Shown here in pieces: positions 55,857 to 60,912 of a DNA stretch of 64,000 bases. Every line of letters begins with the position of its first letter. Positions within the stretch are counted from its first letter, which is position 1. The stretch is from Parafrankia irregularis. GTDB lineage: Bacteria; Actinomycetota; Actinomycetes; Frankiales; Frankiaceae. The DNA is taken from contig NZ_FAOZ01000040.1 of NCBI RefSeq assembly GCF_001536285.1, positions 1 through 64,000 on the forward strand, in the 5' to 3' direction. Both the position numbers and the translations under genes were made by a program. Below the pieces are notes generated by a model, which searched no databases, had not been told where the DNA came from, and saw only the letters and a program-made list of their open reading frames with translations.

Positions 55857-56864
55857 TCAGGACCTGGCCTCGGGGCTGGACACCTCCGGGCTGGAGAACA
55901 GGCGGAACAGCATCCACAGTGAGGGCACCAGGATGACGAGCCCGCAGCAGACCGCGATCAGCATCGCCACGATGTTGGCCGACGGGGCGGCGGCCGAGTC
56001 GATCGTCGCCTGGCCCATCACGAGATCCGGGTACTGCGCGGCGGCCCAGCCCCAAAGCACGCCGGCGACCGCGAGACCCGCCGTCACCCTCGCCGTCGTG
56101 AACCTGTGCCGCCACAGCGCCACCAGCGAGGACACCCCACCGATCGCGGAGATCACGACGAACGGGATCGAACGATCGGCGAACCGATCCGCGACCACCG
56201 GTGCCTCGGACCACAGCAGAGGCAACAGCGCGGCGGCGAGCAGCCCGGACACGACCGCACCGCCGAGCGCGCGGCGCCGGAAGCCCGGGACCAGATGCGC
56301 CGTCTCGGTGCTGGCGGCCGCGTCGCGGCACAGGTAGACCGCCGCCAGGAAGGCGGTCACCGCGAGCGCGAACACACCGCAGAGGATCCCGAAGGCACTC
56401 TTCACCGGGGTGAGCGGTGCGCCTTCGGCGACGTCACCGGTGGCGAGCGCGGCGCCGGCCACCCCGAGGGCGACCGGCGTGATCGCCGACGAGACCGCGA
56501 ACACGTGGCCCCACCAGTGGTCCGGCCCGGCGGCGCCTGAGCCGTACGCCCGGTACACGTAGGCCGCGCCACGCAGCACGATGCCGGCGAGCGCGCAGAT
56601 CAGCGGGATCTCCAGGGTCGAACCGACGACACCGAACGCCGCCGGGAAGCCGCTGAACATCATCACCACGACGAAGATGAGCCAGACGTGGTTCGCCTCC
56701 CAGATCGGGCCGAGCGCCGCGGAGACGAGCCGGCGCTGGTCCGCGGCGTCGCGGCCGCGGGCGAACAGGTCCCAGACGCCTCCTCCGAAGTCGGCGCCGC
56801 CGGTGAGGGCATAGGCGGTGAGCCCGAGCACCATCACGATGGCGAGCAGGTCCGCGGCGGTCAT
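55857..56864 (-). CDS. cydB: Cytochrome bd oxidase subunit II
   Basis: 335 residues, eight to nine membrane segments. LLAIVMVLGLTAYALTGGADFGGGVWDLFARG, SAALGPIWEANHVWLIFVVVMMFSGFP and YAAYVYRAYGSG-like region are subunit II marks (GADFGGGVWDL, GPIWEANHVWL). ATG 56864 has GGAGGGGG upstream and overlaps the cydA stop as ATGA. Forms the terminal oxidase with CydA. No cydCD is in the window. Confidence 0.95.
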   Translation of the reverse strand: MTAADLLAIVMVLGLTAYALTGGADFGGGVWDLFARGRDAADQRRLVSAALGPIWEANHVWLIFVVVMMFSGFPAAFGVVGSTLEIPLICALAGIVLRGAAYVYRAYGSGAAGPDHWWGHVFAVSSAITPVALGVAGAALATGDVAEGAPLTPVKSAFGILCGVFALAVTAFLAAVYLCRDAAASTETAHLVPGFRRRALGGAVVSGLLAAALLPLLWSEAPVVADRFADRSIPFVVISAIGGVSSLVALWRHRFTTARVTAGLAVAGVLWGWAAAQYPDLVMGQATIDSAAAPSANIVAMLIAVCCGLVILVPSLWMLFRLFSSPEVSSPEARS

Positions 56865-58522
56865 CGGGCGTCCCCCTCCTGCCCGGCACGGCCCGCGCCG
56901 GGACGGTCCGCACCGGGACGGCCGGGCGGCTCGGTTGTCAGGGCGTCGAATCCGGAGGCTTCCGACCTCGCGGAGCCGCCCGGCGGCGCGGACTGTTCGG
57001 GCAACGCTGAGGCTTCCGGCCTGGCGGAGGCTTCCGGCGCCGGCGCGGGCTGGCCCGCCGGCGCCGGCCGTGCATCCGGAATGTCCGGCGTGGTGGTGCT
57101 CTCGGCGATGGCGCCGCCGAGCACCGGCCCGCCGGTCGCCATCCGGCGCAGGATGAGCACCAGCGCGACCGCGAGGCCCAGGTAGAGCAGGACCGTCCCA
57201 GCGAAGATCACCGGCATGCCCTCGGTGGTCGTCACAGCCTCGTCCACCCGCATCCGGCCGTAGACGATCCAGGGCTGGCGGCCGCCCTCGGTCACCTCCC
57301 AGCCGGCCATCATCGCCGCCACGGAGGCCGGGCCCGAGGCAACCGCCGCCCACAGCCACGATCTGCCGGTGGGCAGCAGCGGCCGTTCCCCGCGCCGGCG
57401 CCGGCGCCAGACCGCGATACCGGTGGCGCCGGCGAAGGCGATCAGGGCACAGCCGAGCCCGACCATCACGTTGAAGGCCAGGTGCACCTGGCGCGCGTCC
57501 GGCCGCTCCTCCGGGGGCACCGCCGACAGGCCCGTGATCTCGTGATCGGCGCTGAAGCCCTCCATCAACGACAGCAGGTTGGGGATCTCGATCCCGTGCC
57601 GGACCTCGCCGGTCTCCTCGTCGTAGATCCCGCCGATGGTCAAGGGGGCATGTGTCTGGGTGTGGCCGATCCCCTCCATCGCGGCGAGCTTGATCGGCTG
57701 CTTCTCACCGACCACCCGGGCCGCGATGTCGCCGACGACCAACTGCAGGGGGGCACAGACGAGCAGGACGGTCAGACCGACGCGCAGTCCGCGCTGGTGA
57801 TACGCGTCGCGCCGGCCGCGCAGCAGGCCGACGGCATACACCCCGGCGACGATGCCGCCGGTGCACATCAGCGCAGCCAGCAGCATGTGGACGAGCTGAT
57901 GCGGCGCGGTCGCGGCCAGGAACGGGGCGAACGGCTCTGCCGAAACGACCTTGCCATCGACCTCTGTGATGTGACCGGGGGTGTTCATCCAGGCGTTGGC
58001 CGTGATGATGAAGAGAGTCGACATCGTCCCGGCGATGGCGATCGGCCACAGCGTCATCCAGTGAGCCCGCGGCGAGAGGCGCTTCCAGCCGTACAGGTAC
58101 ATGCCGATGAAGATCGCTTCGGTGAAGAACGCGAAGCCCTCCAGGGTGAACGACAGTCCGAGCACACCGCCGTACCGGGCCATGAAGGCCGGCCACAGCA
58201 GACCGAACTCGAAGGACAGTGCCGTCCCGGAGACTGCGCCGACGGCGAACAGCACCGCGAACGCCTTGGACCACTTGCGGGTCAGCGCCAGCCAGACCGG
58301 GTCACGGGTGCGGACCCAGCGGCCTTCGACGAACAGCAGGAGCCACGGCATCCCGACGCCGAACACCGCGAAGCAGATGTGGAACGCCAGCGAGATCGCG
58401 GTCTGCGCGCGCGCCAGGTCGGTGGACAGTGCGCTCGCGCGGGTCACATCCGCAGCCAGCGAGAGCGTCTCAACGTGGGAGAACACCGCGACATCGGTGA
58501 GAACTGCGGCGGCTTGGACCAT
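56861..58522 (-). CDS. cydA: Cytochrome bd oxidase subunit I
   Basis: 553 residues. DLARAQTAISLAFHICFAVFGVGMPWLL with the haem-ligand His, FSFTLEGFAFFTEAIFIGMYLYGW-like region, NAWMNTPG, the Q-loop with TQTHAPLTIGGIYDEETGEVRHGIEIPNLLSLM, and AGWEVTEGGRQPWIVYGRMR. Menaquinol:O2 oxidoreductase, high-affinity respiration without proton pumping. The C terminus has a Pro/Ala/Ser extension of about 80 residues. ATG 58522 follows GGAGGAG. Three TTCTACG-type dyads lie just upstream and overlap likely -10 boxes (TAGAAT), suggesting BlaI repression. Confidence 0.96.
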   Translation of the reverse strand: MVQAAAVLTDVAVFSHVETLSLAADVTRASALSTDLARAQTAISLAFHICFAVFGVGMPWLLLFVEGRWVRTRDPVWLALTRKWSKAFAVLFAVGAVSGTALSFEFGLLWPAFMARYGGVLGLSFTLEGFAFFTEAIFIGMYLYGWKRLSPRAHWMTLWPIAIAGTMSTLFIITANAWMNTPGHITEVDGKVVSAEPFAPFLAATAPHQLVHMLLAALMCTGGIVAGVYAVGLLRGRRDAYHQRGLRVGLTVLLVCAPLQLVVGDIAARVVGEKQPIKLAAMEGIGHTQTHAPLTIGGIYDEETGEVRHGIEIPNLLSLMEGFSADHEITGLSAVPPEERPDARQVHLAFNVMVGLGCALIAFAGATGIAVWRRRRRGERPLLPTGRSWLWAAVASGPASVAAMMAGWEVTEGGRQPWIVYGRMRVDEAVTTTEGMPVIFAGTVLLYLGLAVALVLILRRMATGGPVLGGAIAESTTTPDIPDARPAPAGQPAPAPEASARPEASALPEQSAPPGGSARSEASGFDALTTEPPGRPGADRPGAGRAGQEGDAR

Positions 58523-58564: not shown

Positions 58565-58619
58565 TTCTACGTCCCGTAGAAAATTCTACGAGATGTAGAA
58601 GATTCTACGTTCCGTAGAA
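58565..58619. promoter_or_regulatory. Triple operator upstream of cydA (candidate BlaI sites O1-O3)
   Basis: Three 17-bp dyads at 58565-58581, 58584-58600 and 58603-58619, all TTCTACG-N3-NGTAGAA, with an exact 19-bp period. TTCTACGTTCCGTAGAA is the best. The minus strand shows TAGAAT twice inside them, fitting -10 boxes of the cydA promoter, so occupied sites would block RNA polymerase. Confidence 0.85.
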
Positions 58620-58669
58620 GATTTTTTGTTGTGAGATCGAGCGACCTGACCGAACTTGCGGGCAGGAAG

Positions 58670-58686
58670 TTCTACGCGGCGTAGGA
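58670..58686. promoter_or_regulatory. Fourth operator, at the blaI start
   Basis: TTCTACGCGGCGTAGGA, same consensus, ending 7 bp before the blaI ATG at 58694. TAGGAT at 58682-58687 could be the -10 box, putting transcription start on or near the ATG (leaderless). Indicates autoregulation. Confidence 0.8.
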
Positions 58687-58693
58687 TCGGTCT

Positions 58694-59203
58694 ATGGCTC
58701 GCCTGGGTGACCTGGAACGGTCGGTCATGGACGTCCTGTGGTCCGCGGAGGGCTGGCTGACCGCACGTAACGTCGCGGCCCGCCTGCACCACGAACGCGA
58801 CCTCGCCTACACCACCGTGCTGACCGTGCTGGAGCGCTTGGAGCGCAAGGGCTTCGTGCGCCGCCAGCGGGCCGCGCGCGCCCACCGTTACGCGGCGGCC
58901 GACAGCAGGGAGGCCGTGGTCGCGGAGGCGATGCTGGAAGCTCTCGGCACCGCCGACGACCGGGGCTCCGCGCTCGTCCGCTTCGTTGGCTCGGTGTCCG
59001 CGGAGGAGGCCGAGATCCTGCGCCGCGCGCTCGAGCCCACCGGCCCCGCCGACACGCCCGAGGCCACGCCCGGCACCGAGGGCGGCAGCGGCGAGCAGGC
59101 ACACGCGCCCGTCGAGGCCCCGGCGGCCGGATCCGACGGTGGCCCGGCGCGAGCCGAGGCCGGCACCGACAGCGCCCCTGACGCGGCGGCCCCGAGCGCC
59201 TGA
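58694..59203 (+). CDS. blaI: BlaI/MecI family transcriptional repressor
   Basis: 169 residues. The winged helix MARLGDLERSVMDVLWSAEGWLTARNVAARL, LAYTTVLTVLERLERKGFVRR, AHRYAAADSREAVVAEAML is typical BlaI/MecI/CopY. A Thr/Glu/Ala-rich tail of about 50 residues follows, longer than in classic members. Operators in front of it and of cydA suggest it represses itself and cydAB. An M56 peptidase lies 407 bp downstream, as BlaR1-like partners do. Confidence 0.93.
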   Translation: MARLGDLERSVMDVLWSAEGWLTARNVAARLHHERDLAYTTVLTVLERLERKGFVRRQRAARAHRYAAADSREAVVAEAMLEALGTADDRGSALVRFVGSVSAEEAEILRRALEPTGPADTPEATPGTEGGSGEQAHAPVEAPAAGSDGGPARAEAGTDSAPDAAAPSA

Positions 59204-59270: not shown

Positions 59271-59330
59271 GAGAGTTGAGGATTTCGGTCGTTCGAACAA
59301 CCACGATCCTCAGGATTTGCTCGGCAGCAG
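59271..59330. repeat. Dispersed palindromic repeat, copy 2
   Basis: TGAGGATTTCGGTCGTTCGA continuing ACAACCACGATCCTCAGG and TTTGCTCGGCAGCAG. Central GTTCGAAC palindrome and TGAGGAT / ATCCTCA outer arms. Copy 3 follows 34 bp later. The whole gap 59204-59610 (407 bp) contains copies 2 and 3 and no gene. Confidence 0.8.
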
Positions 59331-59363
59331 CGACGGCGACCGCGACCCGAGGCCACGGCGACC

Positions 59364-59424
59364 GAAGACCTGAGGATCTTCGTCGTTCGAACAACCACGA
59401 TCCTCGGGATTTGCTTGACAGCAG
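59364..59424. repeat. Dispersed palindromic repeat, copy 3
   Basis: TGAGGATCTTCGTCGTTCGA continuing ACAACCACGATCCTCGG and ATTTGCTTGACAGCAG. Nearly identical to copy 2 over the 27 bases from GTCGTTCGAAC to ATCCTC. Confidence 0.8.
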
Positions 59425-59610: not shown

Positions 59611-60912
59611 ATGACGACCGCGGCCCTTCTCGCCCTGTTCGCGTGCGCGCTGGCATGGCCGGCCCCACGCCTGCTGGCCGCCGCCCGTTGGCCGCACCGC
59701 TGTCCGCGCGCCGCGATCGTGCTGTGGCAGGCGATCGGCCTGGCCGGTGGGGTGTCCGCACTGCTCGCCGCGGCGGCGTTCACCGTGGCCCCGTTGTCGC
59801 AGGGCATCCCCGCCGCGATGGCCGACCACGCGGCCAACCTCCTGGCCGGCGACCCACTCGTCGGGCTCGGCCGGATGAATCTCATCGGTCTCGCGATCGC
59901 CGCCGCGCTGGCCGCCCGGCTGTTCGGCGTGTTGGCCGTGTCGACAGCGGCGACGCTGCGCGAACGTCATCGGCACCGGCACCTCGTCGATCTGGCCGGT
60001 CACCGGCACCGCGACCACCTCCACGATCACGCACATGGTCCCGTACACGGACGCAGCGCCGGCCACGGCCAGCCCGCGGAGTCAGGAACGCCCGCAGACG
60101 TCCCGAACGCGGGCGACGCCAACCCGGCGGGCGACCCGGCAGGGCCAGTTGGTGACCCGGCAGGGCCAGTAGGCGCCCCTGCCGGGCCAGAGGGCCGAGC
60201 GGCAGGGCCGATGGGCCTGGCGGGGGGCCGTGCCGAGCTTCCCGGCGAGGGGTGTTCCCTGTGCCTGCACCGGGAACGCAGCGCCGCCCGGCTGCGCATC
60301 CTCGACCATCCGGTCGCCGTCGCCTACTGCGTTCCCGGCGGGCGGCACGCGCGGGTCGTGGTCTCCGAGGGGCTGCTGCGAACGCTGACACCGGAGGAGC
60401 TCGACGCTGTCCTCGCGCACGAGGAGGCGCACGTCGCCGGCCGGCATGACCTGGTGATCCAGCCCTTCATGGCCTGGGAGCGCACCTTTCCGTTCCTGCG
60501 CCCGGCACGCGAGGCCACCGCCGCGGTGTCGCTGCTGGTCGAGATGCTCGCGGATGACGCCGCCGCGCAGCGGACCAGTGGGCGCACGCTGGCGCGGGCA
60601 CTGGCCCGGCTCGGGGTGACCCGTGCCGCGGTGCCCGCCGGCACGCTGGGGGTGACCGGCATGCCGCCGGGCACCGCCCCCGAGTCGCTGGCGGTGCTGG
60701 GAGTCGGCGGGGCCGGCCGCCTCGTCGCCACGATGACCACCTTTCTCGGCGAAAGCCCCGGCGCCCAGCGGCGCAGTCCCGTGCACACACCTGTTGTCAC
60801 CCGGATCTCCCGGCTGCTCGACCCCCCGACGGTCCCGATCTGGCTGCCCGGCGCGGCCTACCTCACCGCGGTGGCGGTGTTCCTCGCCCCGGTCCTGTTG
60901 CTGCTCCTCTGA
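59611..60912 (+). CDS. M56 (BlaR1-like) membrane peptidase with histidine-rich loop
   Basis: 433 residues. Membrane segments at both ends (TTAALLALFACALAWP, AIVLWQAIGLAGGVSALLAAA, LIGLAIAAALAARLFGVLAV, and C-terminal AAYLTAVAVFLAPVLLLLL). Zinc motif HEEAH at residues 270-274 in LDAVLAHEEAHVAGRHDLV; VEMLADDAAAQ supplies the third ligand region. Between segment 3 and the peptidase lies a striking His-rich loop (RHRHRHLVDLAGHRHRDHL, HDHAHGPVHG), then GDPAGPVG repeats and a CSLC pair. ATG 59611. Likely cuts or signals to BlaI; His loop suggests metal or haem sensing. Confidence 0.9.
   Translation: MTTAALLALFACALAWPAPRLLAAARWPHRCPRAAIVLWQAIGLAGGVSALLAAAAFTVAPLSQGIPAAMADHAANLLAGDPLVGLGRMNLIGLAIAAALAARLFGVLAVSTAATLRERHRHRHLVDLAGHRHRDHLHDHAHGPVHGRSAGHGQPAESGTPADVPNAGDANPAGDPAGPVGDPAGPVGAPAGPEGRAAGPMGLAGGRAELPGEGCSLCLHRERSAARLRILDHPVAVAYCVPGGRHARVVVSEGLLRTLTPEELDAVLAHEEAHVAGRHDLVIQPFMAWERTFPFLRPAREATAAVSLLVEMLADDAAAQRTSGRTLARALARLGVTRAAVPAGTLGVTGMPPGTAPESLAVLGVGGAGRLVATMTTFLGESPGAQRRSPVHTPVVTRISRLLDPPTVPIWLPGAAYLTAVAVFLAPVLLLLL

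What the first reader, a model, noticed from the sequence alone, without database searches (positions are those of the whole stretch)
58565..58686. BlaI-type repressor with four matching operators appears to control cytochrome bd oxidase
Three dyads with an exact 19-bp period cover the cydA promoter, and a fourth overlaps the blaI start. All share TTCTACG-N3-CGTAGAA. cydAB in actinobacteria is usually discussed with Rex-like redox control; a BlaI/M56 circuit would let a membrane signal, perhaps a metal, haem or envelope signal, switch the oxidase. This is a clear and testable regulatory system.
Basis: partly seen in the sequence, partly recalled or inferred. Interest (0 to 1): 0.78.

Follow-up and report, generated by a model that had tools for sequence, protein, structure and literature searches.

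The report
BlaI repressor switch for respiratory oxidase
In this nitrogen-fixing Frankia-type bacterium a repressor of the penicillinase-repressor family appears to have its DNA sites in front of the copper-free respiratory oxidase genes and, in its relatives, in front of copper- and haem-handling genes too, so it looks like a switch for the cell's oxygen-reducing machinery.

Summary
The four dyads are real. Three form a tandem array with a 19-bp period (58565, 58584, 58603) upstream of cydAB; the fourth (58670) lies 7 bp before blaI, over a conserved -10-like hexamer. Two match TTCTACG-N3-CGTAGAA exactly, two with one mismatch. In 35 genomes of the family the core TTCTAC-N5-GTAGAA occurs 134 times against 4 for the reversed control. 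It stands before cydA in 28 of 29 promoters read (0 in 200 shuffles) and at all ten cydA loci unlinked to blaI, so the sites follow the target gene, not only its neighbour. Other sites mark copC-copD-ctaG, hemE, SCO/PCuAC, ctaE, a TlpA-like thioredoxin and an unnamed membrane protein. Elsewhere in the class such dyads precede cydA in 20 of 23 promoters; six Streptomyces-like ones carry Rex sites instead. BlaI control of cydAB is thus well supported by comparison but untested at the bench, and not wholly new: M. tuberculosis BlaI is reported to bind the cytochrome bd promoter. New here are the operator array, the copper/haem regulon, and a His-rich, CxLC-bearing insert in the linked metallopeptidase, which makes copper or oxidase status the leading candidate signal.

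The parts
58565..58581 (.). Operator dyad O1 of the cydA array (exact consensus)
   Evidence: kept in relatives
58584..58600 (.). Operator dyad O2 (core exact; one mismatch to TTCTACG-N3-CGTAGAA)
58603..58619 (.). Operator dyad O3 (exact consensus)
58670..58686 (.). Auto-operator dyad O4 before blaI (one mismatch, in the half that overlaps the -10-like hexamer)
58682..58687 (+). -10-like hexamer TAGGAT, 6 nt before the blaI ATG; TANNNT kept in relatives; suggests a leaderless transcript (inferred)
58694..59203 (+). blaI: BlaI/MecI-family repressor, 169 aa, with a low-complexity C-terminal tail
   Evidence: PF03965; best solved chain 2g9w, E 2.1e-26 (that 2g9w is Rv1846c BlaI is recalled)
59611..60912 (+). 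Membrane metallopeptidase of BlaR1/M56 or M48 type, 433 aa, no beta-lactam sensor domain found
   Evidence: M48 above, M56 below cut-off; HEEAH, hydrophobic segments
59968..60066 (+). His-rich insert of the metallopeptidase (residues 120-152)
60253..60264 (+). CxLC motif of the metallopeptidase (residues 215-218)
60418..60432 (+). HEEAH zinc-peptidase motif (residues 270-274)
56861..58522 (-). cydA, cytochrome bd oxidase subunit I, 553 aa, GRQPW present
   Evidence: PF01654, E 6e-134
55857..56864 (-). cydB, cytochrome bd oxidase subunit II, 335 aa, overlaps the cydA end by 4 bp
   Evidence: PF02322, E 2.9e-59

Best explanation
BlaI, as a dimer, binds TTCTAC-N5-GTAGAA dyads. A row of them upstream of cydA lets several dimers sit side by side on one promoter and shut the copper-free bd oxidase; one dyad over the -10 of blaI gives autorepression. 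The membrane metallopeptidase downstream of blaI is thought to relieve repression by cutting or displacing BlaI when respiration through the copper-dependent branch falters. In the family the same repressor also reaches genes for copper delivery to the aa3 oxidase (copC-copD-ctaG, SCO/PCuAC), haem synthesis (hemE) and, in one genus, ctaE, so the regulon would balance the two terminal oxidases and their cofactors. Shown by sequence and comparison: sites, their conservation, targets, BlaI co-occurrence. Inferred: binding, direction (repression), proteolytic relief, and copper or oxidase status as the signal.
For: Exact dyads 134 v 4 control in 35 genomes (sums mine). cydA promoters: 28 of 29 read have a dyad with at most one mismatch within 360 bp, 0 of 29 in each of 200 shuffles; ten cydA loci unlinked to blaI all have one. 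Auto-operator with a TANNNT hexamer inside it in genera g1, g2, g7. The 6 kb around each of the four BlaI paralogues of this genome has no such dyad at up to one mismatch. Targets: of 110 distinct exact-dyad contexts, 44 cydA, 21 hemE/DUF3817 (22 with L102), 13 copC, 4 small membrane protein, 3 TlpA-like, 1 SCO/PCuAC, 1 ctaE; ctaE dyad at most one mismatch in 8 of 8 g7 genomes. Class: cydA divergent from blaI in 18 of 40 loci; blaI-type dyad before cydA in 20 of 23 promoters outside family f15, shuffles mean 0.02, maximum 1. Literature: M. tuberculosis BlaI said to bind cytochrome bd and ATP-synthase promoters (PMC5473688, passage); cydABCD and rv1303-1305 higher in a sigC mutant in copper-poor medium (PMC7924339).
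Against: No binding, expression or mutant data. No sigma-70-like promoter found at the array. 10 contexts precede an FAD monooxygenase and 4 an alpha/beta-hydrolase/TetR pair, which fit a respiratory theme less well; 1 an Rrf2 regulator; 8 had no label. ctaE carries a clear site in one genus only; elsewhere a two-mismatch site at a nearly fixed, possibly coding, position. The auto-operator is missing in the g6 genomes. Distant CydA homologues (31-49%) in family genomes have no exact dyad listed beside them. Outside the family exact dyads are not enriched genome-wide (17 v 17 over 14 genomes), and 3 of 23 cydA promoters lack one. The peptidase is below the Pfam M56 cut-off and its model is poor (pLDDT 52).
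Confidence: 0.8

Rival explanations
1. The dyads are sites of another regulator that happens to stand near blaI; BlaI only autoregulates, or does something else.
For: No biochemistry links BlaI to the dyads; the genome has five BlaI-family proteins.
Against: The same dyad stands directly before blaI in genera g1, g2 and g7 and before cydA; the genomes without any dyad (G014, G016) have no BlaI match; the arms resemble the TACTAC/GTAGTA sites seen at blaI and cydA in other families; the paralogues' surroundings have none.
Confidence: 0.08
2. The repeats act as RNA or DNA structures (terminator, attenuator) and not as operators.
For: 58603-58619 followed by a T run scores as a terminator-like element on the + strand.
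Against: No gene on the + strand is known to end there; on the cydA strand no T run follows the array; dyads at other cydA genes and at copC or hemE keep the same arms at different distances from the start codon with variable N5.
Confidence: 0.03
3. BlaI does bind, but the physiological input is envelope or beta-lactam stress as in the classical system, and the oxidase is a downstream stress gene.
For: BlaI family and membrane metallopeptidase pair; amoxicillin-clavulanate raises blaI-blaR and cydAB in M. tuberculosis (PMC5473688, passages).
Against: No beta-lactam sensor domain found in the peptidase; no beta-lactamase recognised among the labelled targets (beta-lactamases were not searched for as such); most labelled targets are oxidase, copper and haem genes.
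Confidence: 0.15

Closest known systems
BlaI (Rv1846c) with the Rv1845c metallopeptidase of Mycobacterium tuberculosis
   Same: Closest solved relative (2g9w); [quoted passage not shown] similar arms TACTAC/GT(A/C)GTA before cydA in the seven mycobacteria-like loci read
   Different: There blaC is a target and the gene numbers place cyd (rv1620-1624) away from blaI (PMC7924339); here tandem 19-bp operators, TTCTAC arms, divergent cydAB, copper/haem targets, and a His-rich CxLC insert in the peptidase
BlaI-BlaR1 / MecI-MecR1 of staphylococci
   Same: Repressor family PF03965 and a membrane metallopeptidase gene nearby
   Different: No penicillin-binding sensor domain found, no beta-lactamase or PBP target recognised, peptidase below the M56 cut-off
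Rex repression of cydABCD in Streptomyces
   Same: Repressor at the cytochrome bd promoter; haem genes also in its regulon (PMC5355995, passages)
   Different: Other protein and operator; best Rex-like match has 5-7 mismatches of 14 in 29 Frankiaceae cydA promoters, while six Streptomyces-like promoters have a site with at most 2
CopY copper repressors
   Same: NCBIfam CopY model matches weakly; copper genes among the targets
   Different: 34.8 bits against a cut-off of 121.95; the targets here look like copper supply to an oxidase, not copper export (inference)

Membership tests
BlaI/MecI repressors (PF03965) | Match over the curated cut-off | tested here: met
   84.3 bits v 22.6
BlaI/MecI repressors (PF03965) | Binds inverted-repeat operators at its own and target promoters | tested here: inconclusive
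   Sites present and conserved; binding not testable here
BlaI/MecI repressors (PF03965) | Neighbouring gene for a membrane metallopeptidase | tested here: met
   59611-60912, HEEAH, terminal hydrophobic segments; also downstream of blaI in relatives
BlaR1 peptidase M56 (PF05569) | Match over the curated cut-off | tested here: not met
   20.2 bits v 31; M48 PF01435 41.3 v 20.3
BlaR1 peptidase M56 (PF05569) | C-terminal beta-lactam sensor domain | tested here: not met
   No such Pfam domain in 433 aa
BlaR1 peptidase M56 (PF05569) | Cleaves or inactivates the partner repressor | not testable with these tools
   needs a bench test
Cytochrome bd oxidase | CydA and CydB domains and GRxPW motif | tested here: met
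Rex regulon | TTGTGAANNNNTTCACAA-like site before cydA | tested here: not met
   best 5-7 mismatches of 14 in 29 Frankiaceae promoters, no better than shuffles
CopY/TcrY equivalog (TIGR02698) | Score over the equivalog cut-off | tested here: not met
   34.8 v 121.95

The most novel reading that the evidence does not exclude
In Actinomycetes the founding job of the BlaI/membrane-metallopeptidase pair is to watch the copper or haem-copper-oxidase status of the respiratory chain, not beta-lactams; in Frankiaceae the peptidase does so through a His-rich, CxLC-bearing insert that binds metal, and BlaI release switches on the copper-free bd oxidase together with copper delivery and haem genes.
Probability: 0.35. 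Interest if true: 0.82.

Novelty: new variant of a known kind. Interest (0 to 1): 0.64.

Why it matters
How a BlaR that lacks the beta-lactam sensor is triggered is called unknown for mycobacteria (PMC5473688, passages). A regulon made of cydAB, copper delivery to aa3 oxidase and haem synthesis turns that into a short list of direct tests: copper chelation, aa3 inhibition, haem limitation. It would also name the switch by which nitrogen-fixing Frankia choose their terminal oxidase, and it would explain why cydAB is Rex-governed in some members of the class and BlaI-governed in others.

Tried and rejected
Rex as regulator of this cydA: rejected. Terminator or attenuator: unlikely. The idea that all near matches in the genome form a regulon: rejected, mismatched places are hardly more common than in the reversed control. 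ctaE as a family-wide target: rejected; only genus g7 has a clear site, 8 of 8. The identical dyad sequence in G025 (L195) is not at ctaE, which lies on another contig there. An exact-dyad regulon outside the family: not enriched, 17 v 17 over 14 genomes, although single places there are meaningful (cydA in G102 and G214, the small membrane protein in G214). Structure of the peptidase: model too poor (mean pLDDT 52), no fold search made; a profile search of solved structures found only two HtpX/M48 fragments. Literature searches for BlaI with cydAB, cytochrome bd, ctaE/qcr, hemE, copper, Rv1845c/Rv1846c or Frankia showed, in what I opened, only the M. tuberculosis link; not every listed paper was opened, and Sala et al. 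2009 is not held, so its content is second hand.

Full report
What is there. The region holds two divergent units: cydA (56861-58522, minus) with cydB (55857-56864, minus), and blaI (58694-59203, plus) followed after 407 bp by a membrane metallopeptidase gene (59611-60912, plus). Between the start codons lie four 17-bp dyads: 58565, 58584 and 58603 with a 19-bp period, and 58670 just before blaI. The common core is TTCTAC-N5-GTAGAA. The genome carries nif-like genes (L010, recognised by eye), and among the named loci Parafrankia sp. EUN1f is the nearest, with cydA 99% identical.

Is it more than chance. Within the window the four matches with at most one mismatch are these four. In the whole genome the exact core occurs 8 times against 0 for the reversed pattern; over 35 genomes of the family the sum is 134 against 4 (sums mine). 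With mismatches allowed most of the excess over the control vanishes, so the arms are nearly fully specified.

Who binds. BlaI orthologues (76-100% identity over about 115 residues) are found in 32 of 35 genomes; the three without are G010, G014 and G016. G014 and G016 also have no dyad. G010 has six dyads; its cydA starts about 630 bp from a contig end, and in its close relatives blaI lies about 800 bp away on that side. A dyad stands 24-25 bp before blaI in the genera g1, g2 and g7, where its right half (GTAGGA, GTAAAA or GTAAAG) doubles as a TANNNT hexamer six or seven bases before the ATG; this suggests a leaderless transcript whose -10 the repressor covers. In g6 the dyad at blaI is missing but those at cydA stay. 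The four BlaI paralogues of this genome have no dyad at up to one mismatch in the 6 kb fetched around each.

Trans test. CydA was sought in the 35 genomes; 33 have a match, 48 match rows in all, and the tool fetched 30 loci. In 29 of these 30 a dyad with at most one mismatch lies within about 250 bp of the CydA match; the exception, L141, has two mismatches, and in L157 the only dyad is the one beside blaI. A stricter script read 29 promoters (L139 dropped) and found 28 with such a dyad within 360 bp, against none in 200 rounds of shuffles. In ten loci cydA is not linked to blaI (another contig, or 0.55 and 2.6 Mb away): four are second cydA copies in genus g2 (L136-L139) and six are the cydA of genus g7 (L140, L142-L145, L147). 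All ten have dyads. Tandem spacing is 19 bp in 14 pairs, 18 bp in 4 and 23 bp in 2. The match rows that were not fetched include distant CydA homologues (31-49%); no exact dyad is listed beside those, so the rule covers the orthologous cydA only. Two g7 genomes without a CydA match, G028 and G033, keep BlaI and dyads at other genes.

The rest of the regulon. From the exact dyads I could place 110 distinct contexts (dyads, not promoters, so an array counts more than once): cydA 44, hemE/DUF3817 21 (plus L102, hemE by reading), copC 13, FAD monooxygenase 10, a small membrane protein 4, alpha/beta hydrolase with TetR 4, TlpA-like thioredoxin 3, and one each at ctaE, SCO/PCuAC and an Rrf2 regulator; 8 had no label. 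At least 24 of the 134 places were not examined. For example loci Pfam confirms CopC, a CopD-CtaG fusion (CtaG is a cytochrome oxidase assembly factor), uroporphyrinogen decarboxylase, DUF3817, SCO1/SenC, PCuAC and cytochrome oxidase subunit III. In genus g7 the ctaE dyad is present in 8 of 8 genomes with at most one mismatch. In this genome itself the exact sites outside the window lie at copC-copD-ctaG (C1:11153), a TlpA-like gene (C2:28216), hemE/DUF3817 (C6:78034), an FAD monooxygenase (C7:359118) and the small membrane protein (C16:29710). The FAD monooxygenase and hydrolase targets do not obviously fit respiration.

Beyond the family. Of 246 class genomes, 143 match BlaI at E <= 1e-20; best matches are 77-100% identical in Frankiaceae and 63% or less elsewhere. 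I fetched 40 of the other loci. In 18 of 40 a different cydA (27-48% identical) lies divergently 58-336 bp from blaI; in 16 of these 18 a loose palindrome test (no control run) marks at least one dyad, mostly TTCTAC-N5-GTAGAA or TACTAC-N5-GTAGTA, spaced 19 bp in L223 and, reading the second dyad by eye, in L220 and L230. A second set of 30 cydA loci from 29 genomes was read: a blaI-type dyad with at most one mismatch stands before cydA in 20 of 23 promoters outside family f15 (shuffles: mean 0.02, maximum 1) and in 0 of 6 of f15; Rex-like sites with at most two mismatches stand in 6 of 6 of f15 and 0 of 23 others (L274 was not readable). Some of these, in f16 and f35, are the cydA beside blaI; those of f4, f14 and f30 are not. 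In G214 a small membrane protein 42% identical to the one in this genome also has a dyad 11 bp upstream, so a second target is shared between families. Against this, the exact pattern as such is not enriched in 14 outgroup genomes (17 v 17).

The partner. The gene after blaI encodes 433 residues with HEEAH and hydrophobic segments at both ends. It passes the Pfam cut-off for M48, not for M56, and only two HtpX/M48 fragments answer among solved structures. Frankiaceae copies carry an extended loop with a median of 11.5 histidines in the 170 residues before HExxH and a CxLC in 18 of 18, against a median of 4 and CxxC in 0 of 35 readable copies from other families (5 of 40 were not readable). The three g6 copies read are His-rich but lack CxxC. 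This is what a metal- or redox-sensing insert could look like; nothing shows that it binds metal.

What is known. M. [quoted passage not shown] 2009, which is not held). [quoted passage not shown] In copper-poor medium a sigC mutant has higher cydABCD and rv1303-rv1305 transcripts than its parent (PMC7924339, abstract and section 2.4 read); its authors explain this by reductive stress, and I note only that both are reported BlaI targets. Rex controls cyd in Streptomyces (PMC5355995, passages). A study of M. smegmatis cydAB control by Crp does not hold the word BlaI (PMC7739888, term search of the text). My searches showed no report of BlaI control of copper-delivery, hemE or ctaE genes, nor of BlaI control in Frankia; I opened only some of the listed papers, and the library lacks most subscription journals.

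Verdict. The fresh part is a copper/haem/oxidase regulon, its operator architecture, and a testable candidate for the signal.

Noticed in passing
L107:2736-3086; L100, L123, L190, L254: A small membrane protein (111-143 aa; the L107 copy has no Pfam, NCBIfam or PHROG match) has a dyad 8-15 bp upstream in two families and lies next to copC in L100, L123 and L190; a candidate unnamed part of oxidase or copper biogenesis.
   Followed up: partly
59277-59424: Two 54-bp direct copies, 89% alike, in the 407-bp gap between blaI and the metallopeptidase gene.
   Followed up: no
L016 and L040, metallopeptidase gene: The reading frame appears broken in the low-complexity linker in these two near relatives (two overlapping matches in different frames); assembly error or real change not decided.
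   Followed up: partly
G002, G006, G007, G008, G009 (genus g2): These genomes carry two cydA copies, one near blaI and one elsewhere; both have an exact dyad upstream.
   Followed up: partly
L106, L113, L126, L168, L172, L173, L185: An FAD-dependent monooxygenase with a dyad about 8-22 bp upstream is a recurrent target whose link to respiration is unclear.
   Followed up: no
L165:1507: In G003 a dyad stands 43 bp before an Rrf2-type regulator gene.
   Followed up: no
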